From a virus, in the IMG/VR virus record IMGVR_UViG_3300025921_000053, positions 1-37,628 of that record: a DNA stretch of 37,628 nt. One strand, given 5' to 3'. Below are positions 1,556 through 37,412 of this stretch, one piece after another (position 1 is the first letter of the stretch; each line of letters opens with the position of its first letter). Position numbers and translations under genes: made by a program. The notes beneath the pieces were generated by a model. That model had not been told where the DNA came from. It made no database searches and saw only the letters and a program-made list of their open reading frames with translations.

Positions 1556-1630
1556 CGCGGCGTGGAGCAGTGGCAGCTCGCCGGCCTCATAAGCCGGAGG
1601 CCGTGGGTTCGAACCCCACCGCCGCAACCA
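1556..1630 (+). tRNA. Initiator tRNA-fMet (CAU)
   Basis: 75 nt with a full cloverleaf. Acceptor strands CGCGGCG and CGCCGCA leave the C1-A72 mismatch that marks bacterial initiator tRNAs. The D arm is GAGC/GCTC, the anticodon loop CTCATAA, the T loop TTCGAAC, and CCA is encoded. The anticodon stem has G29-C41 and G30-C40, but the third pair is reversed (C31-G39) compared with the usual three G-C pairs. It sits alone on the plus strand among phage genes, so it is phage-borne unless the contig joins host DNA here. Confidence 0.9.
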
Positions 1631-1881: not shown

Positions 1882-2430
1882 TCATCGTTCTGGTGTTGCC
1901 GGTCCTCGTGGAGCTGCCATGCAAGGAGGCACGAGCCGGCGATGACCGTGACGCTGAGTAGGCGGATCGTGATGGCGTCTCCTCCGACGAGTGCGTATCC
2001 ACAACAACCGTCCGCCGACAGAACCTACGACCTCGAGGAAATCCAGCGGGTTGAGCAAACAGTTCCGCCCGGCCTCGTCGAAATCGCTGTAGGCGTAAAC
2101 GTAGAAGCGATCGCCGACGTGTTCCTCGAACACGTATCGCTTCCCGTACGATTCCGCGCTCATGGCGCGCTGGGCGTGACCCGGCTTCACTTTATCCAGA
2201 TCGCACAACAACACAACCCCGATCGGGCGACGGCGCGAGCCGAAAAGCCGGCCTAGACCTTCCTCGACCAGCCCCCGCGCTTCAGGCGGGAGCGCATCGT
2301 AGGCGTGATTGCCGTCGGCGTCGTGGATCGGGACTTTTTCGAGCCCGTCGAAGATGGGAGGGGTTGAAGACACGAAGGGCGCGAAATTCGAACGTCCGTC
2401 CTGCGGGATAACTGCGAGTCCCGCTACCAC
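1882..2430 (-). CDS. Phage protein of unknown function
   Basis: 182 aa from a GTG directly after the stop of the upstream small ORF (TGA then GTG). Residues 1-145 look like a normal globular protein (RPIGVVLLCDLDKVKPG, YVFEEHVGDRFYVYAYSD). The last 40 are arginine-rich and overlap the probable start of the next gene, so the true end may lie in another frame. No family recognised. Confidence 0.5.
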   Translation of the reverse strand: MVAGLAVIPQDGRSNFAPFVSSTPPIFDGLEKVPIHDADGNHAYDALPPEARGLVEEGLGRLFGSRRRPIGVVLLCDLDKVKPGHAQRAMSAESYGKRYVFEEHVGDRFYVYAYSDFDEAGRNCLLNPLDFLEVVGSVGGRLLWIRTRRRRRHHDPPTQRHGHRRLVPPCMAAPRGPATPER

Positions 2431-2535
2431 TCAGCCCTTGGACGGAACGGGCGGCTGGGTCGAGGACTGGGGCCGCAAAACAGCGGAAGAGCGGCCCCCG
2501 TTCCCTCTTGAGGAGTGAAACCAGCGTCGATCCAC
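2431..2535 (-). CDS. 34-aa ORF after the conserved GTG motif
   Basis: A GTG inside the motif TGTCGATTAGTG opens a 34-codon ORF (MDRRWFHSSRGNGG, then Ser/Pro-rich) whose TGA touches the GTG of the next gene. The placement matches two larger genes that start in the same motif. Too short to assign. Confidence 0.35.
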   Translation of the reverse strand: MDRRWFHSSRGNGGRSSAVLRPQSSTQPPVPSKG

Positions 2536-2564
2536 TAATCGACACCGCGTGTTTATTTTGTGAG
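2533..2564 (-). promoter_or_regulatory. Bipartite motif, copy A
   Basis: On the minus strand CTCACAAAA, 11 nt, then TGTCGATTAGTG ending in the GTG of the small ORF. The same spacing occurs at 7806-7837 and 9174-9205. Confidence 0.5.
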
Positions 2565-2583
2565 GTGCACGAAGGTCATATGG

Positions 2584-2634
2584 CTTCGGGGAGAAGTGGT
2601 TGTCGCTCTGGTGCTACCCGCCGTTTGCGCTCGG
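2584..2634 (+). repeat. Boundary repeat, copy 1
   Basis: CTTCGGGG end, GAGAAGTGGTTGTCG and the core CGCCGTTTGCGC. Left border of the tmRNA cassette, in inverted orientation to copy 2. On the minus strand one frame ends in PLLPEAI, as in copies 3 and 5. Confidence 0.9.
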
Positions 2635-2671
2635 AATAATTTTGCAGATTGAGAACGAAGGGACTTCGCGC

Positions 2672-2746
2672 ATACTGAAGTGGATTGCTGATGATGGCTG
2701 AAGTAGCCAGTCTCGGACGCGGGTTCGATTCCCGCCGCCTCCACCA
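2672..2746 (+). ncRNA. ssrA: Acceptor piece of a permuted tmRNA
   Basis: The T arm GCGGG-TTCGATT-CCCGC (2719-2735), the acceptor 3' strand CGCCTCC (2736-2742) and ACCA form a tmRNA 3' end; CGGACGCGGGTTC is as in E. coli tmRNA. The acceptor strand pairs with GGGGGCG at 2753-2759, which lies downstream, and includes the G3-U70 pair that specifies alanine. GGCTG (2696-2700) can pair with CAGCC (2786-2790) as helix P2. The 5' end of this piece is not fixed. Confidence 0.75.
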
Positions 2747-2752
2747 GCATGC

Positions 2753-2985
2753 GGGGGCGCACCGGTTTCGACGGGATGGTGAGGGCAGCCGGAGGCGGTT
2801 GAGCAGGCGACTACTCTGACAGCGCAAACCACAAAGGCCAAGGATGAACCCTTTGCCCTGCCCATGGCTGCCTAACCGGTAGCTTGAAGCGGCGTCAGCC
2901 CCCGGACGTGGCAACAGAACAATCGGGGGCACCCTCGAAAGGAGGCGCGCGGAAGATAGCCAGAGCAATCGTTCGGGCGCGGCCC
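2753..2985 (+). ncRNA. ssrA: Coding piece of a permuted tmRNA with tag
   Basis: Begins with GGGGGCG and the tmRNA D-region signature GGTTTCGACGGGAT. The tag frame runs from the GCG at 2822 or the CAA at 2825 to TAA at 2873-2875 and encodes QTTKAKDEPFALPMAA after the resume alanine. The stop codon lies in the loop of a 6-bp hairpin (GCTGCC/GGTAGC), as in helix 5 of known tmRNAs. A further 7-bp helix, 2898-2904 with 2924-2930, follows. Only 6 nt (GCATGC) separate it from the acceptor piece. No second 3' tRNA-like end occurs downstream. The 3' end is approximate. Confidence 0.75.
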
Positions 2986-3279
2986 ATACGGAGCCACACC
3001 ACACCTGGCCGGTGCGGTGGAGCGGCCGCGCCCCGGACGGGCCGCCGCGTTTTGAGATGGTCAAGGTCCACCTTTCCGGTCGAAACTTTGCCGTGACGCT
3101 GAGGCCGTCCCTACCGCTGTGCGTTCGCCGCATGGCATGGTGGGTGAGCCAGCACCCCAAGCTGGCGGTTCGGCATGGACTGCACAAAAGCATTCTGTGG
3201 CAGGGGGAAACGGGCCTGTATTGGAAGCACCATCCTTCACCGTACGACGTACGATGAGACGGCAAGCGCTGGACCGAGC
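2986..3279. other. Non-coding remainder of the tmRNA cassette
   Basis: About 290 bases between the tmRNA coding piece and repeat copy 2. I see no gene with a start, ribosome site or protein-like composition. It may be precursor RNA trimmed from the tmRNA. Confidence 0.3.
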
Positions 3280-3327
3280 AGGCGCAAACGGCGGACCACT
3301 GAGCGCTCCCGCCGACCGACCCCGAAG
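3280..3327 (-). repeat. Boundary repeat, copy 2
   Basis: Inverted partner of copy 1. Keeps the GCGCAAACGGCGGACC core and CCCCGAAG end; the middle is diverged. Right border of the tmRNA cassette. Confidence 0.85.
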
Positions 3328-3379
3328 AAGGCCTTGCACTCCCCGCATTCATCGCGCATTATTGACCCGAGGTTCTGAA

Positions 3380-3907
3380 ATGCGCACTTTCTCGTGGGAA
3401 ATCAACCTTCCAGACATCCTCGAAGGGCTCAAGAACATGCCGCCCGGGCCGCTCGATCGGCGGGACATCGAACTACTGTTCGGCGTCAAATCCCGGCGCG
3501 CACTCCAGCTCCTGCACATTTTCGGGGCCACCGGCGGCCTGTTGCTCACGATTGATCGTGACCGCCTCGAGGAGCGCATCACCGAGATGGCCAGGACCGG
3601 CGAACTGGAGCTGTCCGGCGAGCGCCGGGCCGAGATCGAGTCGAAGCTGGGCGAGCTGGGCGCCTTCCGCCGCGCGCCGTTCGCCGATGTCCGGATCCCG
3701 CTGGGCCGCGCCGCCTACGGCTGCCGGCTCGATTCGCTGCCCGCGGCGGTGCGGTTCGAGCCCGGCCAGCTCGTGATCGAGCACGAAGGCGCCGAGGACC
3801 TGGCGCAGAAGCTGTTCCTGTTGTCCCAGGCGATCATCAACGACACACCGGCATTCGCGGAGCGCGTCGAGCCGACGCGCGCCAGTGCGCTGGCCGCCGG
3901 CGGCTAA
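3380..3907 (+). CDS. Putative DNA-binding protein
   Basis: 175 aa. The ATG at 3380 follows GAGG about 8 nt upstream. An N-terminal segment (DRRDIELLFGVKSRRALQLL, residues about 23-42) looks like a helix-turn-helix. The rest is helical (residues 50-90) with a beta-rich domain to about 140 (VRIPLGRAAYG, RFEPGQLVIEHEG). It is one of few plus-strand genes and lies opposite the integrase, so a regulator is plausible. No family recognised. Confidence 0.65.
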   Translation: MRTFSWEINLPDILEGLKNMPPGPLDRRDIELLFGVKSRRALQLLHIFGATGGLLLTIDRDRLEERITEMARTGELELSGERRAEIESKLGELGAFRRAPFADVRIPLGRAAYGCRLDSLPAAVRFEPGQLVIEHEGAEDLAQKLFLLSQAIINDTPAFAERVEPTRASALAAGG

Positions 3908-4091: not shown

Positions 4092-4748
4092 CTAATACTT
4101 GCTCCGGTTCCTCTCGACGGCCTGTATTCGGCGTCGGTTCGTGGCGCGGGCGTACTTCGTGGTGTTGGCGATGTTGACGTGGCCCAGCGCGTCCTGCACG
4201 ACGTGGAGCGCGTCGGTTTCTTCCAGTAGGTGCATCCCCCGGCTGTGCTTGAGTACGTGAAAGTGGGCCAGGTCAGACGGGATGCTGGCTATTTTGCAGT
4301 ACGCCTTCATCAACTCATCAAGCCGCCGGCGCGAGATCGGGCGGTGGTTGCGGCTGGTGAAGATCGCGCCCGGCGCCGGCCCGCGTTCCTTGAGCCAGGC
4401 TTTAAGTGCGCGGCGCTCAAGGTCATGCATGGGGAATTCGCCGCCGAAGGATCCCTTTCCACGGGTGACCCTTAGCCGGCCAGACCGGTCGTCGTAATCC
4501 TCCATCCGAAGCCGGCCGACTTCCGAAGCCCGAAGCCCTTTGCAGTACGCCACCCTGAAAATGGCCTCATCGCGTCTTGATCCGCGGGCGACCCGGAAAA
4601 GGTCCTGGAGCTGTATGGGGCTTAGGCTTTTAACCTCCGTGTTTTCAGCACGGCGGCGCTTCGGTTTGAACCGCTCAGAATAGTTATTTTGAGCGGTTGG
4701 AGGGGAAAGATGCTCGTTTTCCCCAATGTTTTTCGTGGCGTCGTCCAA
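4092..4748 (-). CDS. int: Tyrosine recombinase (phage integrase)
   Basis: 218 aa covering mainly the catalytic domain. Visible active-site residues are Arg73 in GLRASEVGRLR, Lys98 in TRGKGS, His164 in FHVLKHS, His190 in ALGH, and the nucleophile Tyr199 in TTKYA. The second Arg of the HxxR motif is Lys here (HVLK), a variant I believe occurs in some integrases. The N-terminal core-binding domain is missing or reduced. The TTG start at 4748 is uncertain. It would catalyse site-specific integration and excision, marking the element as temperate. Confidence 0.85.
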   Translation of the reverse strand: MDDATKNIGENEHLSPPTAQNNYSERFKPKRRRAENTEVKSLSPIQLQDLFRVARGSRRDEAIFRVAYCKGLRASEVGRLRMEDYDDRSGRLRVTRGKGSFGGEFPMHDLERRALKAWLKERGPAPGAIFTSRNHRPISRRRLDELMKAYCKIASIPSDLAHFHVLKHSRGMHLLEETDALHVVQDALGHVNIANTTKYARATNRRRIQAVERNRSKY

Positions 4749-7837: not shown

Positions 7838-7915
7838 TTCTATGGCTTCGGGGAGAAGTGGGCGGGAGCCCTGGAACGGTCCGCCGTTTGCGCCTGTAAG
7901 GTTATAGAAACTCAC
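7808..7915 (-). CDS. Linker ORF through boundary repeat 3
   Basis: 35 codons from a GTG inside the end of the 58-aa gene to a TAG that overlaps the next GTG. It reads straight through repeat copy 3 (NLTGANGGPFQGSRPLLPEA) and ends LTKLPYRVD. It keeps ribosomes moving from gene to gene; whether the peptide itself acts is unknown. Confidence 0.35.
   Translation of the reverse strand: MSFYNLTGANGGPFQGSRPLLPEAIELTKLPYRVD
7846..7895 (+). repeat. Boundary repeat, copy 3
   Basis: CTTCGGGGAGAAGTGG end, a GGGC/GCCC mini-hairpin in the middle, core CGCCGTTTGCGCC. Faces copy 4 (8527) and with it brackets three small genes. Confidence 0.9.
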
Positions 7916-8403: not shown

Positions 8404-8595
8404 TTAGATTACCTTGATCCCGTTGGCGCGCAGGATGGCCGCGAGGCAGGGCCACGCGATGTAGATGACCACTAGCGCGAGCGATACCCACATAGCCACG
8501 CAAAGCAGCAGAAACGCCAGAAAGTTCAGGCGCAAACGGCGGCCCGATGAGGGCTTCCGCCCACGGACCCCGAAGCTATGGAAGTGCGTACTCAA
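8404..8595 (-). CDS. Small membrane protein, holin-like
   Basis: 63 aa. One long hydrophobic stretch (NFLAFLLLCVAMWVSLALVV and on to about residue 52) may form one or two membrane passes. The TTG start overlaps the sigma-factor stop (TTGA) and has GGGAGG 8 nt upstream. Its N-terminal 25 residues (FGVRGRKPSSGRRLRL) are encoded by boundary repeat copy 4, so the repeat has become coding sequence. A holin role is inferred from size and context. Confidence 0.55.
   Translation of the reverse strand: MSTHFHSFGVRGRKPSSGRRLRLNFLAFLLLCVAMWVSLALVVIYIAWPCLAAILRANGIKVI
8527..8575 (-). repeat. Boundary repeat, copy 4
   Basis: Inverted relative to copy 3, with a GGGC/GCCC mini-hairpin. Lies inside the 5' coding part of the holin-like gene. 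Confidence 0.85.
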
Positions 8596-9176
8596 GCCGC
8601 AGTCCTCCCGCGCAGAGCAAAGTAGCGTCGCATCTTCGGAATCGCCGCCTGCTTGATCTGGGTAACCCGTGTGTGGTGGACGCCCAGCCGTTTACCCGTA
8701 GAAACGACACCGGCGCCCTGTATGCAAACGAGACGTACCACCTGGGCTTCGCGGTCGGGCAGGGAATCGACAGCCGCATTTACGGCTTTCTGCTGCTCCA
8801 GGCGCTCGATCTGGCGTTCGGCCGTTTCGGACCGGTCCACCAGGTGGAGGCCGGCGTCGTTCAGCGGCTCCATGGTGGCGTTGAACCAGTTCGACCGCCG
8901 GACGTACTCCCAGATCGCATTGTTGATCCGGGCCCTGGCGTACCTGGGGAACGGAACTTTGAAGATGGTCTGATACTTCTCCGCCGCGTGGAGTAACCCG
9001 ATATACCCGGCACTGCGGAGCTCGTCGAGCTCGAAAGAGGGGGGCAGCGATTTAGCGATGCTTCTCGCCGCGAGGTCAGCCAGGGACATGTTTGCGAGGA
9101 TCCGTTCATCGCGAACGGGGAGAGGGGTTTTCGGGAATGGGACGAGCTTCGGCGCGTGAGGCTGCGTCAAATACAC
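8592..9176 (-). CDS. Phage sigma-70-family factor
   Basis: 194 aa. A region 2-like block (DELRSAGYIGLLHAAEKYQ, then PFPRYARARINNAIWEYVRR, residues about 51-95) and a region 4-like HTH (SLPDREAQVVRLV, KRLGVHHTRVTQIK, residues about 138-182) match small alternative sigma factors of the FliA/SigF type. No region 1 is seen. It would direct host RNA polymerase to phage promoters, perhaps for late or lysis genes. The GTG start lies in the bipartite motif and shares a base with the TAG of a linker ORF. Confidence 0.8.
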   Translation of the reverse strand: MYLTQPHAPKLVPFPKTPLPVRDERILANMSLADLAARSIAKSLPPSFELDELRSAGYIGLLHAAEKYQTIFKVPFPRYARARINNAIWEYVRRSNWFNATMEPLNDAGLHLVDRSETAERQIERLEQQKAVNAAVDSLPDREAQVVRLVCIQGAGVVSTGKRLGVHHTRVTQIKQAAIPKMRRYFALRGRTAA

Positions 9177-17159: not shown

Positions 17160-17303
17160 TCATCGAAAGACTAGAACCGGATTTGGCCCGCCAAACGATG
17201 AAGGCCCGGAGCTGCCCCAGGCTCCGGTAAAGATCCTCCAGGCGCAAACGGCGAACCGCCCCAGGGCGACAGCCACTTCTCCCCGAAGAAAAAAGCATTT
17301 CAT
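17160..17303 (-). CDS. Linker ORF through boundary repeat 11
   Basis: 47 codons. The ATG overlaps the upstream stop (ATGA). Starts MKCFFLRGEVAVALGRFAVC from the repeat, then a Gly/Ser/Pro tail. Unlike the other linkers its end meets no gene; it closes the transcription unit. Confidence 0.35.
   Translation of the reverse strand: MKCFFLRGEVAVALGRFAVCAWRIFTGAWGSSGPSSFGGPNPVLVFR
17232..17288 (-). repeat. Boundary repeat, copy 11
   Basis: Near-consensus copy with GGAGGATC extension. Preceded, like copy 15, by GAAATGC on the minus strand. Confidence 0.9.
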
Positions 17304-21315: not shown

Positions 21316-21370
21316 CCCTCCAGGCGCAAACGGCGGACCGCCCCTGAGCGACAACCACTCCTCCCCGAAG
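21316..21370 (-). repeat. Boundary repeat, copy 16
   Basis: Near-consensus copy filling the space between the converging genes 21100-21315 and 21374-21949. Confidence 0.9.
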
Positions 21371-21373
21371 AAA

Positions 21374-21949
21374 TCAAAACCGTGAAAGCCTTCCCACGAT
21401 CTGATCATGAATAATTCCTAAAACCTCTCTCTTGCCATCCTGACTCAACTGCTTCAACCCACTCTCCAGCACCTCGATCACCCGTAACGCCACCGTCTCC
21501 GCATCCACCGCCACAGCCATGCCCTTGCGCACGGAAAGCAGCCTCCCCGCGATCGGCGCCAGGCCCTCGACCCATTCAGCCCCCACGGACTGCGCGCGCG
21601 CTATTTCCCGCCAGTCCGCCCCGTCCCAGCGCCACAGGATATAGAGGCACTCTGCCCGGTTGTGTCCCCGGCCTGGCCCCACCGAGCCGGCGCATTCGAG
21701 CAGTACGCACGGCGCCGGGATCTCCGCGATGGCCAGCTCGCCGCCCGGCTTCAGAATGCGGCCCTCGAACGCGAAGCCGGCGGGTTTCGAGAGATCCACG
21801 GATTCGACGAGCTTCAGCCAGGTGAGGGCGCCGCGCTTGCCGGAATGCGGAAGCCGGACCGTACCCTCGGGCGCGATCGCGCGCGCCTCCGGGGGTTTCG
21901 CCGTAAGCTGTGCTTCCAGTTCCTCGCGACGTTGGGCCGGGGAGGACAT
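21374..21949 (-). CDS. 191-aa protein of unknown function
   Basis: Begins MSSPAQRREELEAQL. The middle (PAGFAFEGRILKPGGELAIA, CLYILWRWDGADWREIARAQ) is beta-rich and the end is helical (LESGLKQLSQDGKREVLGII). The stop abuts repeat copy 16. A perfect 8-bp inverted repeat sits 18 bp upstream of the ATG. No family recognised. Confidence 0.6.
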   Translation of the reverse strand: MSSPAQRREELEAQLTAKPPEARAIAPEGTVRLPHSGKRGALTWLKLVESVDLSKPAGFAFEGRILKPGGELAIAEIPAPCVLLECAGSVGPGRGHNRAECLYILWRWDGADWREIARAQSVGAEWVEGLAPIAGRLLSVRKGMAVAVDAETVALRVIEVLESGLKQLSQDGKREVLGIIHDQIVGRLSRF

Positions 21950-28642: not shown

Positions 28643-29080
28643 TCAGCCCACTCTCCAGGCTCTTGACGCCCGAGCAATGGGCAGCCGCCGCAGCTCGTGC
28701 GCAAATGCGACCACGATGTCGCGGCCGTTCAGATCGACCAGGCCAAGCGAGTAATCGCGCGCGCGCTTCAGTAGCACGAGGTCACCGCGCTGCGCGCGGA
28801 GGATGGGGACTTCAGGCATTTGATAGTCGGAGGTGATGCGTTCAGCCAGCGCCCGGAGCGATCGCGCGCCGGCGTATTGGCGGATCAGGGGAAGCAGCTC
28901 GGCTCGCGAGGTGTATTTGCCGCGAAAGGGAGCGGCGAGATCCGCGCCCGTCATGGCGAGAATTGCGTCAGAGACGAACAGGCCACAGTCGAAGGAGCCG
29001 TAAGCGAACGGGCGGTTCTGGTTATCGATGAGGAATCTGGCGAGTGAGCACTGCCAGCAGGGGAGGCGGGTGAGTTTCAA
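28643..29080 (-). CDS. Tail-associated NlpC/P60-like peptidase
   Basis: 145 aa. RPFAYGSFDCGLFVSDAILA holds the likely catalytic Cys in the DC motif; a His (AFAHELRRLP) lies near the C-terminus. Size and position, before the J-like gene, match the DUF6950/NlpC-type proteins of siphovirus tails (lambda K-like). It may cut peptidoglycan during DNA entry. Confidence 0.7.
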   Translation of the reverse strand: MKLTRLPCWQCSLARFLIDNQNRPFAYGSFDCGLFVSDAILAMTGADLAAPFRGKYTSRAELLPLIRQYAGARSLRALAERITSDYQMPEVPILRAQRGDLVLLKRARDYSLGLVDLNGRDIVVAFAHELRRLPIARASRAWRVG

Positions 29081-29167
29081 GGCAGAATTTCAGGCAGGAA
29101 GATCGAATGATGCTGGGAAAACCTACGCCGCTTGTTCCTACGGGAAAATGCTGGTTACCATGCCGTC

Positions 29168-29217
29168 CAGGCGCAAACGGCGGATCGCGCCAGGGCAGCG
29201 TCCCACTCACCCCGAAG
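29168..29217 (-). repeat. Boundary repeat, copy 17
   Basis: CCAGGCGCAAACGGCGGATC ... CCCCGAAG. In the gap between the glycosyltransferase and peptidase genes, where it forms the edge of a small module with copy 18. Confidence 0.9.
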
Positions 29218-29230
29218 CCATGAAGGCGGA

Positions 29231-30286
29231 TTAGCTGAGCGCGGGCAGATTCATTACGGCCGCTTGTGCGCTTTGGGTGAGGAAGGTTTTCCACTGTGCC
29301 ATCGCTCCTGCGACGTAGTGCGTCAACGCGGTGTAGCCTTCCTGGCCCGCATACGGATCGGAGACTAGGTGATCCCCCACGCGCGCGGCGTGCTCGGGGC
29401 TATCGCCATGCGCGACCCAGGACTGCGGAACCCAATCGATGACTTCCGAAACCACCGAGGGAACGCCCTCGGCCGCGGCGTCAGCGGTCACGATGTTGAA
29501 CGTCTCCGACTGCGAGAGCTGCAGGCACAAATCCATGGTCCCGACGATAGTTCTGAAACTGGCCCATGGCTGCCACGGGACTTCGACGAGCTTCGCCCAA
29601 TTCAGCCCGGCGAACATGTTCCGCAGTGATGCCAGAATTCCCTGCGATCCGGGATTCTCCTGGCGGTTCACGCTAACGTGAAACTCGAGGTTCGCTTTAC
29701 GCCTTCGCGCGATCAGCAAGGCCGCGGCCGCGCTCGTCGAATGGTTCTTCATCAGCCGCAGCGCACCAAACGATCCAATGCGCAGATGATGCCCTGGCGA
29801 ATGATGGTGGAAACGCTCGGGTCTTGCCACATCGTAAAGGTTCGGAAGATAGGCGCAATGATGGCCGTACGTTCGCTCGAAAAATGAGCAGAAGCGTTGG
29901 CTGTTCCCTGCGATCTGAAAGTTCAGATTGTTCGACGCGAGCAGTGCGCCTTCGCGGAATAGCGTGATGGCGCCGGATTCAACCTGCAGAAAACCGATCT
30001 GGCTGTGGCACCTGCAGACGAAGTGTACACGTGGGAACTGATGCAGGATACTCTGCATTTGAGGGGTGCCAATCCATGGCGCCTCGACGATGCAATGCGT
30101 GTAGGGAGCATTGGAAACGGCGGCCGCGACGTCTGTGGGCTCCCACACCGCCGCGACGTCCGCCAGTATGTTGTTCGCGCGCAGCACGCGCGCGGTGTGC
30201 AAGCCGTTTACGCCGAGTCCAACGTGTGAATGATGGTGCCGACCGTGAAAGTTTCGATAGGCGATGAGGACGTGATAATTTGCCAT
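29231..30286 (-). CDS. Glycosyltransferase (GT-B, family 4-like)
   Basis: 351 aa. N-terminal Rossmann-like half (YHVLIAYRNFHGRHHHSHVG). The C-terminal half has HHLRIGSFGALRLMKNHSTS and the E-x7-E region of retaining GT-B enzymes (SQSETFNIVTADAAAEGVPS, VVSE). AAGGGG just before the ATG. It would move a nucleotide-sugar residue to an unknown acceptor. It is unusual inside a tail operon, between baseplate and peptidase genes, and is flanked by boundary repeats. Possible roles: glycosylating the tail or changing the host receptor. Confidence 0.8.
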   Translation of the reverse strand: MANYHVLIAYRNFHGRHHHSHVGLGVNGLHTARVLRANNILADVAAVWEPTDVAAAVSNAPYTHCIVEAPWIGTPQMQSILHQFPRVHFVCRCHSQIGFLQVESGAITLFREGALLASNNLNFQIAGNSQRFCSFFERTYGHHCAYLPNLYDVARPERFHHHSPGHHLRIGSFGALRLMKNHSTSAAAALLIARRRKANLEFHVSVNRQENPGSQGILASLRNMFAGLNWAKLVEVPWQPWASFRTIVGTMDLCLQLSQSETFNIVTADAAAEGVPSVVSEVIDWVPQSWVAHGDSPEHAARVGDHLVSDPYAGQEGYTALTHYVAGAMAQWKTFLTQSAQAAVMNLPALS

Positions 30287-30293
30287 TTCCCCT

Positions 30294-30875
30294 TTACATA
30301 TTGTTGTGACTGCTCGGCGATCGTCCCCAGTACACCTGCACGTCCTGAATCGACGCGACGAACTCCAGCCCGCGATCGCCGGGGTGATCGAGCTGCTGGT
30401 CTTCGTTTGTTAAACGCCGGTCGACCGCTACGTTCATCTCGACCAGGCGGTTCTCGCAATTGATCGAGATCGTTGCTGTGGAGCCGTCCATCTCGATCGT
30501 CGGCTGATCCGTGCGCCCCGCCCAGGAAATGATCGGGTCAGCAATCAATGAGCCGCCCGAATCAAACATCCCGAGATACACCAGCGCCGGCAGCCCGACG
30601 CGAAAGTCCGTCAGCACTCCCGCAAGCAACGTCGGGTCGATGCCGCTCAGCTTCAGCGTGATGCCCTTCGCCTCGACGGTCGTGCCTTCTTCGATGACCG
30701 ACACCTCGCCCAGCGAGCCCACGCCCAGCCAGTCGTGGCCGTTCCAGGTAATGGTTCCGAGCCCGCTCCAGATGTAGGAGGGCCCAGAGACGAAGTGGAC
30801 TTCGACGAAGAGAGCGGGCCGGATCTTCTGGCTGGTGATGGCCGCCAGGAAGAGCGAGGACATGGAGCGCGGCAT
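30294..30875 (-). CDS. Baseplate/hub protein (DUF2163-like)
   Basis: 193 aa. KIRPALFVEVHFVSGPSYIW, WNGHDWLGVGSLGEVS, then ITLKLSGIDPTLLAGVLTD follow the pattern of siphovirus/GTA tail proteins of the DUF2163 kind, which form the ring beneath the tail tube. 30431-30485 is duplicated exactly at the right edge of the window. Starts directly after the stop of the next gene upstream. Confidence 0.7.
   Translation of the reverse strand: MPRSMSSLFLAAITSQKIRPALFVEVHFVSGPSYIWSGLGTITWNGHDWLGVGSLGEVSVIEEGTTVEAKGITLKLSGIDPTLLAGVLTDFRVGLPALVYLGMFDSGGSLIADPIISWAGRTDQPTIEMDGSTATISINCENRLVEMNVAVDRRLTNEDQQLDHPGDRGLEFVASIQDVQVYWGRSPSSHNNM
30431..30485. repeat. 55-bp segment repeated at window end
   Basis: Identical, same orientation, to 37574-37628. 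Length of exactly 55 is typical of an assembler word size. Confidence 0.85.
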
Positions 30876-31262
30876 CTACAACGCCTCCATCACTTCGAAC
30901 TGAATCCCGAACACCCGCGCTTCACCGACCGACCACTTCCGCTGGTTCGACTTCAGGCGCCAGTAACGATCCCCGATACTCGACGGGTAAGCCGCGGCGA
31001 AGTCCGCGCCGAACTGGAACACGTTCGCCACGCCTTTCAAATCCCGCAGAAAGCTGATCCAGGCCTCCGCCTGGTCGGCGGTGAGCGGCGGGAGCGACAC
31101 GTTCGCTTCCATGAACGTCGCGTTCCAGTCCTGCACTTGCTGCTGGCCTGTAAACGGGCTTCTACTCAGCGCAACCACATCAAAGACCGAGAACTCGATC
31201 GACTGCGGCGCCGGCGGATCGGTCGGTATGTCGATGATGTCCCAGCCGAGATATTGAGCCAT
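30876..31262 (-). CDS. Distal tail protein
   Basis: 128 aa. PQSIEFSVFDVVALSRSPFT, QDWNATFMEANVSLPPLTAD, then FQFGADFAAAYPSSIGDRYW. Position right after the tape measure and a beta-rich pattern suit a lambda M/distal tail-like protein. The ribosome site is poor; repeat copy 18 lies just upstream. Confidence 0.6.
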   Translation of the reverse strand: MAQYLGWDIIDIPTDPPAPQSIEFSVFDVVALSRSPFTGQQQVQDWNATFMEANVSLPPLTADQAEAWISFLRDLKGVANVFQFGADFAAAYPSSIGDRYWRLKSNQRKWSVGEARVFGIQFEVMEAL

Positions 31263-31283
31263 GCAGTTTCAAAACGGTTTTTG

Positions 31284-31332
31284 CTTCGGGGAGAAGTCGT
31301 CGGGAGCTATTGGCGATTCGCCGTTTGCGCCT
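31284..31332 (+). repeat. Boundary repeat, copy 18
   Basis: CTTCGGGGAGAAGTCG ... GGCGATTCGCCGTTTGCGCC, between the tape-measure and distal-tail genes. Confidence 0.9.
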
Positions 31333-31339
31333 GAACGGT

Positions 31340-34300
31340 TTAGCGCTTTTGCGGCGTGCGCTTCAAATGCTCTTGTGAGACCTGGAGCGAATTGCTCACT
31401 GCGGAATTGTGCGATGCGATGATAGCCGCCCGCACGCGCTGCTCGGTCATAACCGGGTCCGTGCCGCGAGCGTCGATGGTGTAGTTGTGGACCTGGGTCG
31501 GCTGGCTCATCATGCGCTCTGAGGCGGAGTTGGACGCGATTTCGCCCGAAGCGAAACGCAACTCCGGCCCGTTCTCCCCGGTGATGTACGCGCTGCCCGG
31601 AGATGGCGTGCCACCTTCGGCGAATCCAGGAATCATGCCGACCAGGGAGCTGATCATGCTGCCCATGCCGTTCCCACCACCACCGCCGCCGCGGCTGAAC
31701 AAGCCAGCGATCTTTGATAGCCAGCCGCCGCCGGTAGTATCGGCGCCACCGCCTGGAAAGCCAAAACCGAAATCGCCGAGGCTGGTCGTGCTTCCACCAG
31801 CACCGCCGAACCCCGGCAGCGCGAGCCCAGCCGCCCCGGCCATCTGCACCCAGAGCGCGTGCTGCTCATCCGAGCCGTCCCTCTTGAGCGCGCCACCAAG
31901 ATTGATGCCGAACGTCTTGCCAATTGCCCCGAGCCCAGTCTGCAGCCCAGACTTGATGGTCTGATTCAGCATCTGCTTCCCGACGTCCTGGAACATCTTG
32001 GCAAAGTTCGTTTTCTCGCCCGTGAACAGTTCAGTCAGATTATCGGAGAGCTTCTGGAAAGCGGAGTGCAGCGCCTCATAGATAATGGAAGCGGACGTTT
32101 GCGCGGACTTCTGCATGTCCAGGAAGAAGGCTTTCACGCCGTCACGCAGCGTTCCGAATTGCAGCAGCAGGCGCACGGTTTCATCGGTCTGCTTATTGAA
32201 GGCGTCTTGAGCCTTTGCCGCCAGCGCGAGCGACTGGGAATAACTGAGCGACTGGCCCTGGCCTTTTTCCATGGCGGCTCGGCCGTGCTCGAGTGCGTCG
32301 ATTTCGGCCTGATACTGTTCAAGCGGGGATCGCAGGGCGAGTGCTTCTTTGGCGTCGGCTTCGGCGAATTCCAGCTTCGTGAACTCGACGATCAGGTCGC
32401 GCTTCTTTTTCAATTGCTCGGCGGCTGCTGCGTCCGTCGTGGTCGCGATTAACTGGTTGATGGAATATACTTTCACGTTCAGCGCGGCTTCCCGGACGGC
32501 ATCGGTATACTGAGTGGCCGATTCCAGTGTGATCTTGCGCATCGCGACTTCCTGCTGGAGCCCAAATATCTCTTTGTTGGTCGCGTCGATAACGTCTGCG
32601 TTGCTCTTCGCGGTCAGCATTTTCCGAAGTGCGGGCTCCATGGCCGTCAACGCCTTCAATTCCAGGCCGACCTTGTTGAATTTCAGCGCCAAAATTGCGT
32701 TATCAATACTCGCCTGTCGCACCGCAGCGTCGCCTTCGAGGTTGGCCTGCGCCATTCTCAGGGTCTGCTGCGTCGTGAGATCGCCAGATTTCAGTTGTTT
32801 GTCGAGTTCCTCGCCGTAGGCCTTTAGCGCATCGAGGTGCGCCTGCATCGCAAACGTTGCCTTTAGTTCGGCAGTCTGTTGTTCCGTGAGTTTTGCCGGG
32901 GATCTTGGGTCTGCTTTATGCTGCTCGCGCAATTGCTGGTTGATTTTGAGAATCTCGGCCTGCGCCTTTTGCGCTGCGACCACGGCCATGATCTTGTCGG
33001 GCTCCTGCCCGATGACGGAAATATATTTCGCCGTCATGGCGATTTCGATGCCGAGTTTGGCGATCTCGTCGCCGAAGATGTCTTTCTTGACAGGCTTGAG
33101 GCCGGAGGTGTCGGGCTGGAATAGGTTCTTCGGAGTATTGTGCAGGCCGAGTTCCGGGCCAATCGAACCAGACGCGCGCTCGCTCGCCTCGCGCTCTTTC
33201 TTGATAAGTGCCAGATCGCCGCCGATACTACCGGTTCGCAAGCGGCGCTGAATGACGACGCGCTCGAGCAACGTGTAGGCGTCGAGATATTTATAGAGCT
33301 GACCCGCCGCCTCAAAGGTACTATTCCTAAAGCCGTACATGGCGGCTCCAAGCGCGGCCAGGCCAGTTATAACCAAACCAACAGGATGCGCGGCAACAAA
33401 GTTTAGCGCGCCGCCGAAGATGTATGAGGCGCCGCCAGCTTCGAACAACAGCGGAATCGCAGCCCTGAGCCAGCCGACCATCCCACCGAGCAACGGCAGC
33501 ACGTTCTTCAGGCCGAGAAGCCCTACGCTCAGCTTTTCAATGCCTCCCGCGATGTTGCCGATTCCGCCTTTGGCAATCTGACCAATGAGCGGGATCGCAA
33601 AATTGGCGACCTTCATCGCAATTAGGCCCTCGAGCACGAGTTTCAATGCCTGCGCGTGCTGGGTGGCAAAATCTAGCAGTCGCCCCAGCGTGGTGAGTGC
33701 ATCTGCCAATTTTGTCCCGAAGGTCTCAGCCAGCTTCGGGATGTTGGCTTTAACGGCGATCTGCTCCAGCTTCGTAGCGAAGGCCGTCAGCGCCGGCAGC
33801 GCGGCCGCGGTCAACTGCATGCCGAATCCGGTCCAGGCCATCTTCAGCTCGTTCAGCACCTCGTGGAACTTGATGGTGCGTTCCGCGACTTCCGGCCCGA
33901 TCACCATGCCGAACTGCTTGGCCTTCTCGCGCAGCTCGTCCATGTGCGTGCCCCATTCGTTGAGGAACGGGATCATGAAGGCGCCGCCGCGGCCAAACAA
34001 TTGAATCGCCAGGGCGGTTTTGCCGGCACCATCGGCCATTCCCGCGAACTTCAGAGCTACCTGGTCGATCATAAGACCGGTGTCCTGCAGGTGACCCTGT
34101 GAATCCGTGGTATGGATTCCCAGCCGAGCAAAGATATTCGCCAGCGCGGCGTTGCCGTTCTGTGCCTTGAAAGCCGAATTAGCGAGCTTTTCCATGCCCT
34201 TCACCAGCAACTCGGTAGGGACGCCGACCCGCTGCGCCGCGAAGTTCAGGGCGGAGAGTTGGTCGATGGTCGTTCCTGCCGCCTGGCTCATGTGCTCGAG

Positions 34301-34516
34301 CCCGACGATGGCCTCCATCGATCGCCGTACCATCTCTTCCGTTCCGCCGACGATGGCGCTGCCGACCAGCACACCGGCAGCCGCGATCTTCTCGAGTGAC
34401 CGCTTCACGTCGTTCGCGGTCTTGGCAGACAAGTTCTGCATCTTGTCCATTGCTTCAGAGAACGAAGCAGTGCCGGCCTCGAGATCGATTCTGAGTGTGC
34501 CGATTACGATCGACAT
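31340..34516 (-). CDS. Tape measure protein
   Basis: 1058 aa, the longest gene. Helical N-terminal part (FSEAMDKMQNLSAKTANDVK), a hydrophobic block at about 300-400 (VANFAIPLIGQIAKGGIGNI, LVITGLAALGAAMYGF), then coiled coil. The lambda-H-like C-terminal region is ALHSAFQKLSDNLTELFTGE. It ends in a Gly-rich segment and PSPGSAYITGENGPEL. It sets tail length and is ejected with the DNA. The start overlaps the gpGT end by 13 nt. Confidence 0.9.
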   Translation of the reverse strand: MSIVIGTLRIDLEAGTASFSEAMDKMQNLSAKTANDVKRSLEKIAAAGVLVGSAIVGGTEEMVRRSMEAIVGLEHMSQAAGTTIDQLSALNFAAQRVGVPTELLVKGMEKLANSAFKAQNGNAALANIFARLGIHTTDSQGHLQDTGLMIDQVALKFAGMADGAGKTALAIQLFGRGGAFMIPFLNEWGTHMDELREKAKQFGMVIGPEVAERTIKFHEVLNELKMAWTGFGMQLTAAALPALTAFATKLEQIAVKANIPKLAETFGTKLADALTTLGRLLDFATQHAQALKLVLEGLIAMKVANFAIPLIGQIAKGGIGNIAGGIEKLSVGLLGLKNVLPLLGGMVGWLRAAIPLLFEAGGASYIFGGALNFVAAHPVGLVITGLAALGAAMYGFRNSTFEAAGQLYKYLDAYTLLERVVIQRRLRTGSIGGDLALIKKEREASERASGSIGPELGLHNTPKNLFQPDTSGLKPVKKDIFGDEIAKLGIEIAMTAKYISVIGQEPDKIMAVVAAQKAQAEILKINQQLREQHKADPRSPAKLTEQQTAELKATFAMQAHLDALKAYGEELDKQLKSGDLTTQQTLRMAQANLEGDAAVRQASIDNAILALKFNKVGLELKALTAMEPALRKMLTAKSNADVIDATNKEIFGLQQEVAMRKITLESATQYTDAVREAALNVKVYSINQLIATTTDAAAAEQLKKKRDLIVEFTKLEFAEADAKEALALRSPLEQYQAEIDALEHGRAAMEKGQGQSLSYSQSLALAAKAQDAFNKQTDETVRLLLQFGTLRDGVKAFFLDMQKSAQTSASIIYEALHSAFQKLSDNLTELFTGEKTNFAKMFQDVGKQMLNQTIKSGLQTGLGAIGKTFGINLGGALKRDGSDEQHALWVQMAGAAGLALPGFGGAGGSTTSLGDFGFGFPGGGADTTGGGWLSKIAGLFSRGGGGGGNGMGSMISSLVGMIPGFAEGGTPSPGSAYITGENGPELRFASGEIASNSASERMMSQPTQVHNYTIDARGTDPVMTEQRVRAAIIASHNSAVSNSLQVSQEHLKRTPQKR

Positions 34517-35186
34517 GGTTTCGAGTCTTTACTCTTCGGGAATTGGGCGAAAGCTGCCATCAGGTCTTCCCCGGTGAGCGGTTTCGCGGGCTCGGCCTTG
34601 AAGGGATGGAGCATAAAGCGATCCGGCGTGACGGGAGTCTTAGGAGCTCCAAACGCGAAATTGATGATGCTGCAGTTGAGTTGCGCGAGCAGCACTTCTT
34701 CGCGCTGCATCTGTTCGAGACGCCGCTTGCGTAGTTCGTGGACCTGGCGCGGCGTCATATCGAGCCATTCCTCGTCGGACAACTGCAGGTCCTGGCGCGC
34801 GACGCTCCACGCCTCGAGCCAGGTGAGTGGCGGCCTTACACGGCCGCTTTGGTAGGGTTTTCCGGTTCCTGTTCCGGCTCGGGCATAGACGCGGCCCATG
34901 CCGTGAGGATGGCCTCCTGAATTTTGACGATGTTCTGCGGGTTGATGAGTTCCCCAACCTGCTCGATCGTGTACTTCGCCCCGGCCGCGCGCAGCGCCAG
35001 GTACAGAATAGCTCGGACCAGTTTTGCGGACGGACGAAGTAGGTTCACCTCGCCCGCCAGCACATTGAGGCCGGTCAAATCCTCGCACTCGATCAATAGA
35101 TTGTGCGTGACTACGATCGGCCACTCTTTGCCGTCGAGACGGACCTCGACCTTCTTAATCAACTTCTCAGCGATCCGGCGAGCCAT
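34504..35186 (-). CDS. Tail assembly chaperone gpGT (by -1 frameshift)
   Basis: The gpG frame starts at 35186. At the slippery AAACCCT (34860-34854) ribosomes can shift -1 into the T frame: PPLTWLEAWSVARQDLQLSD, LDMTPRQVHELRKRRLEQMQ and on to 34504. The product is about 227 aa. The T domain has no start of its own. As in lambda, G and GT together would coat the tape measure before tube assembly. Confidence 0.8.
34836..35186 (-). CDS. Tail assembly chaperone gpG
   Basis: 116 aa. KLIKKVEVRLDGKEWPIVVT, then LLRPSAKLVRAILYLALRA and a helical end (NPQNIVKIQEAILTAWAASM). The unshifted product, stopping at 34836, 16 nt past the slippery site. Tail-assembly chaperone by position and shape. Confidence 0.8.
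   Translation of the reverse strand: MARRIAEKLIKKVEVRLDGKEWPIVVTHNLLIECEDLTGLNVLAGEVNLLRPSAKLVRAILYLALRAAGAKYTIEQVGELINPQNIVKIQEAILTAWAASMPEPEQEPENPTKAAV
34854..34860 (-). promoter_or_regulatory. Programmed -1 frameshift site
   Basis: On the minus strand A AAC CCT becomes AAA CCC T, a canonical XXXYYYZ heptamer, six codons before the gpG stop codon and in the right register for the T frame. Confidence 0.8.
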
Positions 35187-35187
35187 G

Positions 35188-35610
35188 TTACGCCACCGCT
35201 TCGGTGATAGTGCCGGTGATTTCCATGCTCAGCGCGAACTCGATGAGCTTCGAGACCTCGAACGGTCCGGTGTCGTACTTCCCGATGAACCCGGTTCCCG
35301 AGACGGTGTAGGTCTCGGTCCCGGAATTGATGGGAGAAGCGATCGAGAAATTGAACACGGTTCTCGCGCGGGCGAGGGTCTGAATGGCCAACTGCGTGGC
35401 ATCCCCGATGAAATTGCCGGTGACTTCCGCAGTCCCCGGCTTGATGATGCCGGGCAGTTTTTCTTCGGTGGCATCCGGTGACAGCAGATGCGTGGCGTCG
35501 ATCGACGGGACGGTGAAGAGCGATGTCTTCACCGTCTTGCACTCGGCTACCGGAATGCCGTTGATCGAGAAGATAGTTCCGTAACCGATTGTGGCTTGAG
35601 TGGCTGCCAT
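35188..35610 (-). CDS. Major tail tube protein
   Basis: 140 aa. TIGYGTIFSINGIPVAECKT, DATHLLSPDATEEKLPGIIK, TAEVTGNFIGDATQL, SGTETYTVSGTGFIGKY: the beta-rich pattern of lambda V/TTP family tube subunits. Just upstream of the chaperone genes as in siphoviruses generally. Confidence 0.85.
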   Translation of the reverse strand: MAATQATIGYGTIFSINGIPVAECKTVKTSLFTVPSIDATHLLSPDATEEKLPGIIKPGTAEVTGNFIGDATQLAIQTLARARTVFNFSIASPINSGTETYTVSGTGFIGKYDTGPFEVSKLIEFALSMEITGTITEAVA

Positions 35611-35669
35611 GAGTTTTCTCCTTTGAAGCGGCTAACAGAGGCGCAGGAAGCGCGAGCCGCGACTCGTTG

Positions 35670-36080
35670 TTAGTCGTTGCAGAGGAATGCGGCGTTGAAG
35701 GTCACCGTCGCCGTTCCGCCAGAGTTGTCGATGATGATCTTCGTGATGTTCTTGGTGATGGGCAGCGGGAAGAGCGTGGTGTTGAGCTGGTTGTGCCAGG
35801 CGACGCTTTTCTTCGCCGCGAGTGCGAACACGTCCCCGGCGAACGGGGAACCCTGCACGTTGGTCGAGACCGTGACGGGCCCGGTGGCCTCGATGACCAG
35901 TGACTGGATGTTCGCCCTTAGGATGTTGAGGTTGTCGATCGTTACCACCTGGCCGGCGGGAACGTCGACCTCGATCGGAGTGTCGACATCGCCTGTAACG
36001 GTGATGGGAGTGTCGGCGGGAAGAGTGGGAAGACCCGGCACCTTCACCGTGGTCGACCAGACGTGCGAGAGTGTTGCCAT
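35670..36080 (-). CDS. Structural protein beside the tail tube
   Basis: 136 aa, nearly all beta: TTVKVPGLPTLPADTPITVT, IEVDVPAGQVVTIDNLNIL, GPVTVSTNVQGSPFAG. Not a known family to me. Between tail terminator and tube genes; may be a minor tube or decoration protein. Confidence 0.55.
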   Translation of the reverse strand: MATLSHVWSTTVKVPGLPTLPADTPITVTGDVDTPIEVDVPAGQVVTIDNLNILRANIQSLVIEATGPVTVSTNVQGSPFAGDVFALAAKKSVAWHNQLNTTLFPLPITKNITKIIIDNSGGTATVTFNAAFLCND

Positions 36081-36140
36081 TGCGTTCGTTCTCCTTGTGT
36101 TTTTTGTTTGAGGGTGCGGGCTTGAAAAAACTGGTAGCGC

Positions 36141-36536
36141 TTATTTCTGAAACCAGAGGTCGTACTCGAGCATTCGCCGGAACGTCCGGCTCACTTCGTC
36201 GAAGAAATCCATGCCGTTCGTGCGGAAGCAGCCCTGCACGATCGTCGCGTCGGGATCGTTCAGCGTTCCCTTGAAGCCTGAAAGCACGGCGTCAATCGCG
36301 TTGCCGAGCAGAATGCAATCCGCCGCGGCGTAACCGTAGCAGTCGATCTGCAGCCGCCGGGAGCCGACGGCCACCGGTCCGACGAACGTGTAGCTCGACT
36401 TGTCCGCGACCAGGCGATAGGTCCAGCTCGGCAGCGCCTGATCCTTCGGAAGCTGTGCGAAGAACCCGCCCGCCGCTGCAATGGCCGCGACAGACGTGTC
36501 CGCCTGCACGAGCAATACGATGCCCTGCTCGATCAT
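36141..36536 (-). CDS. Tail terminator (DUF3168-like)
   Basis: 131 aa. GIVLLVQADTSVAAIAAAGG, LPSWTYRLVADKSSYTFVGP and RRLQIDCYGYAAADCILLGN match the DUF3168 tail-completion family, which caps the tail tube. Gene order supports it. Confidence 0.8.
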   Translation of the reverse strand: MIEQGIVLLVQADTSVAAIAAAGGFFAQLPKDQALPSWTYRLVADKSSYTFVGPVAVGSRRLQIDCYGYAAADCILLGNAIDAVLSGFKGTLNDPDATIVQGCFRTNGMDFFDEVSRTFRRMLEYDLWFQK

Positions 36537-36554
36537 TTGAGTTTGTCGGGGGTG

Positions 36555-36998
36555 TTACGGTTTCTTGCCGAGTGATTCGAGGCCGGCCTTCAGCACTTCC
36601 GTGAACGCTTCCTGCGCCCGTGTTCCGGCTTCGTCAAAAGCCGGCCGCATGTACGGCTGCGCGGCGCCGTGGATCGAGCCGAATTCCTCGAACATGCCCC
36701 ACACGCCCGGCTGGTCGCTGCCGCCGCCTTTTTCTCTTCGCGGCCCTACGTGCGCCGTGCCGGACTCTTCTTTCGCCGAGAGCGTGATCCTGACGTCGAT
36801 CGAGTCGCGCAATTCGCCCGGCTGCCGCTGCGTCGTGGCTTCCTTGAGCACCGGCGCGCGGTCCCTGGCGGCCTGCTGGAACACTTCGCCGCCGGCCAGC
36901 AGTGCTTTGCGCAAATACTTCTTGGCGAGTTTCGGGCCGGCTTCCTGCAGCGCCTCTTCGACGCCGCGCAGGCCTTCGATATTGACCTTGAGGTCCAT
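36555..36998 (-). CDS. Neck/tail protein, HK97 gp10-like
   Basis: 147 aa. KVNIEGLRGVEEALQEAGPK, ALLAGGEVFQQAARDRAPVL, then GELRDSIDVRI and MFEEFGSIHGAAQPYMRPAF are the standard HK97 gp10 features, including the FxEFG-x-H/R...MRPA block. Links head and tail. Its ATG directly follows the stop of the adaptor gene. Confidence 0.85.
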   Translation of the reverse strand: MDLKVNIEGLRGVEEALQEAGPKLAKKYLRKALLAGGEVFQQAARDRAPVLKEATTQRQPGELRDSIDVRITLSAKEESGTAHVGPRREKGGGSDQPGVWGMFEEFGSIHGAAQPYMRPAFDEAGTRAQEAFTEVLKAGLESLGKKP

Positions 36999-37340
36999 CT
37001 ATTCGTTCACTCCCAGGCCCAGGCAGAGCATGTCCAGCCGCACATTCAGCTCGTCGGGATTCACGATCGACTGGATGATGTACGTTCCGTTTCTGGTCTG
37101 CACGCGGAAGCCCGGCAGGATGCCAGCCTGGTACACAATCGTGATCACGCCATATATCTGTGCGGTGTCCTGCCCGGCCCGCACGGTGTCAATGCCGCGT
37201 AACCAGGTGATCTTGGCGTAAGTCGTGACAAATGGCGTGTACCCGCCCGCGACCGCGCCCGAGATGTCTGAGCCAACCGAAGGCTGCAGGATGGTGATCT
37301 GAGTCACCATATCGCCGGGATTGACTACGGGCCATTTCAT
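36999..37340 (-). CDS. Head-tail adaptor / closure protein
   Basis: 113 aa. VNPGDMVTQITILQPSVGSD, YTPFVTTYAKITWLRG, then ILPGFRVQTRNGTYIIQSIV are typical of the SPP1 gp16/head-tail joining family. The ATG comes 5 nt after the CCCCGAAG end of copy 19; no good ribosome site, so coupling to a gene beyond the edge is expected. Confidence 0.85.
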   Translation of the reverse strand: MKWPVVNPGDMVTQITILQPSVGSDISGAVAGGYTPFVTTYAKITWLRGIDTVRAGQDTAQIYGVITIVYQAGILPGFRVQTRNGTYIIQSIVNPDELNVRLDMLCLGLGVNE

Positions 37341-37345
37341 GATTG

Positions 37346-37394
37346 CTTCGGGGAGAAGTGGTTGTCGCCCAGCGGCGGTTCGCCGTTTGCGCTC
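37346..37394 (+). repeat. Boundary repeat, copy 19
   Basis: Near-consensus copy with a CGGCG-GTT-CGCCG hairpin, at the edge of the tail module. Confidence 0.9.
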
Positions 37395-37412
37395 GGAGTT
37401 ATCATCGGAAGG

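What the first reader, a model, noticed from the sequence alone, without database searches (positions are those of the whole stretch)
2672..2985. Circularly permuted, two-piece tmRNA on a phage-like element
Seen: a tmRNA 3' end with CCA lies 6 nt before a tmRNA 5' end. The two acceptor strands pair over 7 bp with the G3-U70 alanine signal, and GGCTG/CAGCC can form P2. The tag ends ALPMAA, with its stop in a hairpin loop. Known: permuted split tmRNAs exist in alpha- and some beta-proteobacteria and cyanobacteria, and some large phages carry tmRNA. A permuted tmRNA inside a repeat-bounded phage cassette would be unusual; I cannot say from memory if it has been described.
Basis: partly seen in the sequence, partly recalled or inferred. 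Interest (0 to 1): 0.8.

Follow-up and report, generated by a model that had tools for sequence, protein, structure and literature searches.

The report
Phage-borne two-piece tmRNA gene
This phage from an environmental DNA sample carries a complete gene for a split tmRNA, the RNA that rescues stuck ribosomes and tags their unfinished proteins; such genes are already known in phages, so this is a well-supported new example, notable mainly for its divergent sequence and tag.

Summary
Window 2683 to about 2935 (+) is a circularly permuted (two-piece) tmRNA gene on a phage. Rfam tmRNA_permuted scores 110.6 bits (cut-off 47), no one-piece model is listed at E<=1, and ARAGORN calls the same gene with tag AKDEPFALPMAA. 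The acceptor and P2 pairs that join the two pieces covary across 62 distinct sequences. A sigma-70-like promoter lies where bacterial genes have theirs. It is not an att remnant: both halves, the tag, the stop-codon hairpin and the pseudoknot are present, and related phages carry similar genes in other contexts. This copy is divergent. Its mRNA part has no match in about 600 sampled bacterial genomes, and its nearest relatives sit on phages with which it shares no detected protein gene. Verdict: real, probably functional, a new member of a known kind. The bounding repeats belong to a separate 20-copy intergenic family that may be this phage's stranger feature.

The parts
2649..2676 (+). sigma-70-like promoter TTGAGA-16-CATACT just upstream of the acceptor piece
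   Evidence: Only promoter-like match in 2400-3300, 9 of 12 (shuffles mean 0.2). Rhodocyclales permuted ssrA genes have TTGAAT-17-CATAAT at the same relative place.
2683..2746 (+). acceptor (3') piece of the two-piece tmRNA: P2 5' strands, T-arm 2719-2735, acceptor 3' strand 2736-2742, A73, encoded CCA 2744-2746
   Evidence: RF04321 model positions from 1; T-stem pairs kept in 62 of 62 distinct sequences
2747..2752 (+). intervening transcribed spacer GCATGC, expected to be cut out (RNase P and 3' processing)
   Evidence: Lies between the encoded CCA and acceptor G1; processing itself is inferred
2753..2935 (+). mRNA (5') piece: acceptor 5' strand GGGGGCG 2753-2759, GGTTTCGAC D-like loop, P2 3' strands, tag ORF, hairpin and pseudoknot; 3' end approximate
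   Evidence: RF04321 2683-2875 and ARAGORN 2654-2966; covarying acceptor pairs
2683..2800 (+). helices joining the two pieces: 2683-2687/2796-2800, 2696-2700/2786-2790, 2713-2715/2772-2774 (2708-2710/2776-2778 weaker, one mismatch)
   Evidence: Corresponding helices with different sequences at like offsets in L024, L136, L049 and L177; Rfam alignment
2837..2875 (+). proteolysis-tag reading frame AKDEPFALPMAA*
   Evidence: ARAGORN coding part 184-222; related phage tags AKPNSFDMPLAA, ADSQESALPMAA, AKPNGFALPLAA, AVPFELPMAA
2866..2884 (+). hairpin with the tag stop codon UAA in its loop
2892..2930 (+). H-type pseudoknot: stem 1 2892-2896/2905-2909, stem 2 GCCCCCG 2898-2904/CGGGGGC 2924-2930, around the conserved ACAGAA
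   Evidence: Stem 2 of 7-9 bp at the same offset from ACAGAA in four other phages (L024, L136, L049, L143) with different sequences
2580..2636 (-). copy of the dispersed 55-bp intergenic repeat, left of the tmRNA (part of the setting, not of the tmRNA)
   Evidence: nhmmer E 6.4e-12
3279..3328 (+). copy of the same repeat in the opposite orientation, right of the tmRNA (setting)
   Evidence: nhmmer E 4.2e-9

Best explanation
A complete, probably active, phage-encoded two-piece tmRNA. A host-type promoter makes one precursor; host enzymes cut out the 6-nt spacer, leaving an acceptor RNA ending in CCA and an mRNA-like RNA, held together by the acceptor stem and P2. Host alanyl-tRNA synthetase would charge it through G3-U70, host SmpB would bring it to stalled ribosomes, and the ribosome would resume at GCC and add AKDEPFALPMAA, a tag ending in AA that ClpXP-type proteases should recognise. 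The likely benefit is to keep ribosome rescue going, with a phage-chosen tag, during infection. Shown: gene anatomy, covariation, phage location. Inferred: transcription, processing, charging, benefit.
For: RF04321 110.6 bits against cut-off 47, ARAGORN permuted call with an open tag frame. Covarying pairs between the pieces: acceptor pair 6 is A-U in 45, G-C in 12 and U-A in 1 of 62 sequences; pair 5 is C-G in 38, U-A in 10 and G-C in 9; one P2 pair is U-A in 33, C-G in 26 and A-U in 3; 97.3% paired against 69% in shuffles. G3-U70, A73, CCA, GGTTTCGAC, the GCC resume codon, the stop hairpin and the pseudoknot are all kept. Promoter in the expected place. Similar genes on other phages with intact tags. 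No SmpB in the window or nine other tmRNA phages, so host SmpB must serve. Phage location: tail, connector, integrase and lysis genes, and the phage's repeat family on both sides; part of the same phage was assembled from another metagenome at 99.99%.
Against: No expression data. The tmRNA itself is seen in one assembly only: the near-identical contig covers window 28740-37628, and the related contig G970 starts level with window 17.3 kb. The closest relative, L024, has a 1-nt insertion that breaks its tag frame, so some phage copies may be decaying or may act without a tag. The host is unknown, so host SmpB, AlaRS and protease fit are untested.
Confidence: 0.88

Rival explanations
1. It is an attP: the phage integrates into the host's permuted ssrA and carries tmRNA sequence only to rebuild the target after integration.
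For: A 218-aa tyrosine recombinase lies about 1.2 kb away (4092-4748, Pfam Phage_integrase 102.6 bits). ssrA is a favoured island target (PMC4383910). The 31-nt T-arm/CCA segment also lies at both ends of another IMG/VR element, 2881418779_000002.
Against: An attP normally holds a fragment; here promoter, both halves, tag, hairpin and pseudoknot are all present, and the sequence differs from any sampled host gene outside the universal T-arm. By inspection of the ORFs, the related tmRNAs lie near terminase-like genes (L048), polymerase and uracil-glycosylase-like genes (L049) or tRNA arrays (L143, L187), with no integrase recognised close by. A relative of this integrase (L229) has no tRNA or tmRNA within 5 kb.
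Confidence: 0.07
2. A decaying or decoy tmRNA captured from a host, without tagging function, perhaps inhibiting the host tmRNA as proposed for the tag-less form of mycobacteriophage DS6A.
For: Model score 110.6 against 160-166 bits for the bacterial genes tested; long branch in the tree; L024 has a broken tag frame. A TLD-only phage tmRNA (DS6A) and inhibition by such molecules are reported (PMC4131195, PMC11915505).
Against: In the window the tag, stop hairpin, pseudoknot, acceptor identity and promoter are all intact, and divergence is compensatory in the helices.
Confidence: 0.1
3. The tmRNA belongs to host DNA at the edge of a prophage or to a chimeric contig, and is not on the phage.
For: It lies 2.7 kb from a contig end; this stretch was assembled once only.
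Against: Phage repeats flank it on both sides (2580-2636 and 3279-3328), G+C is uniform (0.60-0.64), no host gene was recognised in the ORFs tested on the left 2.6 kb, and the sequence matches phage rather than bacterial tmRNAs best.
Confidence: 0.05

Closest known systems
Two-piece tmRNAs on phages: OM43 phage Melnitz, and isolate phages in the millardlab.org phage genome database (PMC9004378)
   Same: Complete circularly permuted tmRNA gene on a phage, without SmpB here; host trans-translation machinery presumed used
   Different: The published set is mostly marine or aquatic (50 of 53) and Melnitz's is alphaproteobacterial in type, with a glutamine riboswitch. This one is closest in type to beta_tmRNA, has a 6-nt spacer, no riboswitch hit, tag AKDEPFALPMAA, and no match in 50,697 phage records at E<=1e-5.
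Betaproteobacterial permuted ssrA (Rfam RF01850), e.g. Accumulibacter, Dechloromonas, Azonexaceae
   Same: Same gene order with a short spacer (3-4 nt), promoter position, G3-U70, stop hairpin, pseudoknot; tag ANDERFALAA resembles AKDEPFAL-PM-AA
   Different: RF01850 only 72.1 bits (cut-off 84) against 231-237 in bacteria; P2, pre-tag region and pseudoknot sequences are different; tag has an extra PM before AA
Phage permuted tmRNAs in IMG/VR contigs L024, L136, L049 (and L177)
   Same: Shared ATTG..GATGA in the acceptor piece of L024, L136 and L049, shared GCAGGCGACTAC pre-tag block, ACAGAA pseudoknot, tags ending (A/D)(L/M)P(M/L)AA in L136, L049 and L177
   Different: 68-80% identity, on phages that share no detected protein gene with the window; L177 has a 19-nt spacer and a longer pre-tag region

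Membership tests
Permuted (two-piece) tmRNA, Rfam RF04321 | Covariance-model score above the curated cut-off | tested here: met
   110.6 bits against 47
Permuted (two-piece) tmRNA, Rfam RF04321 | Acceptor 3' strand plus CCA upstream of the acceptor 5' strand, 7-bp acceptor stem, G3-U70 | tested here: met
   2736-2746 and 2753-2759; covariation across 62 sequences
Permuted (two-piece) tmRNA, Rfam RF04321 | Open tag frame with Ala resume codon and stop in a hairpin loop | tested here: met
   AKDEPFALPMAA*, 2837-2875; hairpin
Permuted (two-piece) tmRNA, Rfam RF04321 | Pseudoknot downstream of the tag | tested here: met
   Stem 2 GCCCCCG/CGGGGGC, same offset with different sequences in four other phages
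Permuted (two-piece) tmRNA, Rfam RF04321 | Precursor cut into two RNAs, alanine charging, SmpB binding, tagging | not testable with these tools
   Needs RNA and biochemistry
beta_tmRNA, Rfam RF01850 | Score above the subfamily cut-off of 84 bits | tested here: not met
   72.1 bits, E 1.4e-21; best of the clan models at this locus, so of beta type but not filed as a member
One-piece tmRNA, Rfam RF00023 | Match to the standard-order model | tested here: not met
   Not listed at gathering or at E<=1 for 2400-3400; three weaker clan overlaps were left out of the table
attP in ssrA | tDNA fragment that completes a split host gene, next to an integrase | tested here: inconclusive
   Integrase 1.2 kb away, but the gene is whole and no lysogen with hybrid genes was found

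The most novel reading that the evidence does not exclude
A phage-only lineage of two-piece tmRNAs, marked by ATTG..GATGA in the acceptor piece and tags ending LP(M/L/V)AA, has passed between otherwise unrelated phages and diverged so far from host genes that it gives proteins a different degradation tag from the host's.
Probability: 0.4. Interest if true: 0.5.

Novelty: new member of a known kind. Interest (0 to 1): 0.3.

Why it matters
tmRNA is a host quality-control system. Carriage of full two-piece tmRNA genes by unrelated phages suggests that ribosome rescue, or the choice of degradation tag, is worth controlling during infection. The window adds an example nearest to the betaproteobacterial type, with an intact but divergent tag. 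Together with L136, L049 and L177 (and L024, whose tag frame is broken) it gives a small natural set on which the question 'does the phage tag differ in destination from the host tag?' can be tested.

Tried and rejected
(1) att-remnant reading: disfavoured because the gene is whole and relatives lie in other genome modules. (2) One-piece tmRNA: not listed by Rfam. (3) Host identification: a specific pattern found no genome; a looser one found only Rhodocyclales and allied Betaproteobacteria or unplaced Pseudomonadota bins; DNA searches of 399 order, 398 phylum and 200 family genomes gave nothing beyond the T-arm, apart from the Dechloromonas gene (88% over 66 nt); the integrase found no close relative in 300 genomes of the order. 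Host remains unknown. (4) The inference 'nearest phage relative lacks the tmRNA' was dropped, because that contig starts level with window 17.3 kb; likewise tail-gene relatives L083-L086 lack it but may be fragments. (5) One viral scan was spoiled by a pattern with one N too many and repeated correctly. (6) Single-strand folding energy of the tRNA-like region is not unusual (z -0.2), so the case rests on covariation, not energy. (7) The tree places the window with L024, L136, L049 and L177, but bootstrap support is weak (40; SH-aLRT 97), so the phage-only lineage is not claimed as shown; alphaproteobacterial and cyanobacterial host genes were not in the tree. (8) In single sequences the pseudoknot stem is only modestly beyond chance (shuffle p 0.004-0.044); the support is its same place in five phages.

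Full report
What was checked. The locus was read directly and scanned with Rfam 15 and ARAGORN. RF04321, the merged permuted-tmRNA model, matches 2683-2875 over its full length with 110.6 bits (cut-off 47; E 6e-21). The only other match in the window is a tRNA at 1556-1627. ARAGORN independently calls a permuted tmRNA with tag AKDEPFALPMAA. With relaxed thresholds the next model at the locus is beta_tmRNA RF01850 at 72.1 bits, below its own cut-off of 84; the one-piece model RF00023 is not listed.

Anatomy. TTGAGA-16-CATACT at 2649-2676 is the only sigma-70-like site in 2400-3300. The acceptor piece follows from about 2683, with the T-arm at 2719-2735, the acceptor 3' strand 2736-2742, A73 and an encoded CCA at 2744-2746. 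A 6-nt spacer (2747-2752) precedes the acceptor 5' strand GGGGGCG (2753-2759). The acceptor stem is 7 bp with G3-U70. Three helices of the P2 region link the two pieces (alignment); a fourth short one has a mismatch. The tag frame is 2837-2875; its stop lies in the loop of a 7-bp hairpin. An H-type pseudoknot occupies 2892-2930.

Chance and covariation. The pattern was used to collect sequences, so fixed pattern positions say nothing; only free positions were counted. In 62 distinct sequences (phage contigs plus Rhodocyclales-type bacteria), acceptor pair 27-42 is A-U in 45, G-C in 12, U-A in 1 and G-U in 1; pair 28-41 is C-G in 38, U-A in 10, G-C in 9 and U-G in 3; P2 pair 4-57 is U-A in 33, C-G in 26 and A-U in 3. 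For these three variable pairs 97.3% of cells are paired, against a shuffled mean of 69.3% (maximum 76.3% of 2000) and 32-47% when slid. These pairs join the upstream piece to the downstream piece, which is what a permuted tmRNA predicts. The pseudoknot stem recurs at the same offset from ACAGAA with different sequences in L024, L136, L049 and L143.

Setting. The window is a whole virus record of 37,628 bases. It has tail tape measure, tail fibre J, tail completion and head closure genes, a 218-aa tyrosine recombinase at 4092-4748 and an SLT transglycosylase, but terminase, portal and capsid were not seen and would lie beyond the right end. Contig 3300025917_000080 is 99.99% identical over window 28740-37628 and extends past it, so part of the same phage was assembled from another sample. 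No SmpB gene was found in the window or in nine other tmRNA-bearing phage records.

Relatives. The exact 31-nt T-arm/CCA segment occurs in 46 viral stretches, many of them ordinary one-piece tmRNAs. A permuted pattern finds 98 stretches in IMG/VR. In bacteria, a short-spacer pattern found 30 loci, all in Rhodocyclales-type Betaproteobacteria or unplaced Pseudomonadota bins, with tags such as ANDERFALAA in those examined. The window's mRNA part found no match in 398 Pseudomonadota genomes or in 200 genomes of the Dechloromonas family. Its best matches are L024 (79.8% over 173 nt) and L049 (76.7% over 159 nt). On a tree of 75 rows it lies nearest L136, L024, L049 and L177, with weak bootstrap support. 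These contigs share no detected protein gene with the window; the only protein-level hits lie in the tmRNA itself. The tags AKPNSFDMPLAA (L136), ADSQESALPMAA (L049) and AKPNGFALPLAA (L177) end like the window's ALPMAA; L143 and L185 have AVPFELPMAA and ADSFELPVAA. L024's frame is broken by one inserted base.

Interpretation. A complete gene with its own promoter, with compensatory divergence and an intact tag, is best read as a working phage tmRNA using host SmpB, AlaRS, processing enzymes and proteases. Transcription, cutting, charging and benefit are inferred. The attP reading is disfavoured because the gene is whole and because relatives lie in other modules without a recognised nearby integrase, but the nearby recombinase leaves it open at about 7%.

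Comparison with the literature. Buchholz et al. 2022 (PMC9004378) describe a two-piece tmRNA in phage Melnitz and count 53 suggested two-piece tmRNAs among 133 unique tmRNA structures in 402 phages; 50 of 53 came from marine or aquatic samples. The 2025 tmRNA database paper (PMC11915505) lists 79 bacteriophage tmRNA sequences and created the merged permuted model. Bradyrhizobium elkanii phages with tmRNA genes are described in PMC12656738, without stating the gene form in the text searched. So the kind is known; the window is a divergent new member, and the possible phage-only lineage with LP(M/L/V)AA tags is a lead rather than a result.

Noticed in passing
20 places from 2580 to 37397, e.g. 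3279-3328, 7842-7899, 17236-17292, 21318-21374, 37342-37397: A dispersed family of about 55-bp repeats (consensus CTCCAGGCGCAAACGGCGGACCGC-n-CCCCGAAGAAAT), 20 copies, both orientations, apparently between genes. Fourteen exact pattern hits against none in 100 shuffles; also in five other IMG/VR contigs, one of 74.8 kb with about 15 hits. Function unknown; recombination, protein-binding or gene-junction sites are possible.
   Followed up: partly
4092-4748 (-): Tyrosine recombinase of only 218 aa, essentially the catalytic domain alone, with HVLKHSRG where HxxR is usual. Whether it acts on the 55-bp repeats is an open question.
   Followed up: no
1556-1630 (+): tRNA with CAT anticodon and encoded CCA whose first acceptor pair is C1-A72 and whose anticodon stem is G+C-rich, as in initiator tRNA; a phage-borne initiator-like tRNA about 1 kb from a tmRNA.
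   Followed up: no
8592-9176 (-): Phage-encoded sigma-70 family factor (Pfam Sigma70_r2 and r4, PHROG sigma factor).
   Followed up: no
30431-30530 and 37574 onward (continued in L217): A 100-bp exact repeat; the window's right end stops 55 bp into the second copy, probably where the assembler broke the contig.
   Followed up: partly
L024 1049-1241: Related phage tmRNA whose tag frame is broken by a one-base insertion (ANS*), though acceptor, P2 and pseudoknot are intact: decay, sequencing error or tag-less action.
   Followed up: no
L028 4398-4842, L038 6804-7295, L043 2949-3369: Viral contigs for which ARAGORN calls permuted tmRNAs with odd tags such as AETKPLAMAAAAGR; type and correctness not examined.
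   Followed up: no
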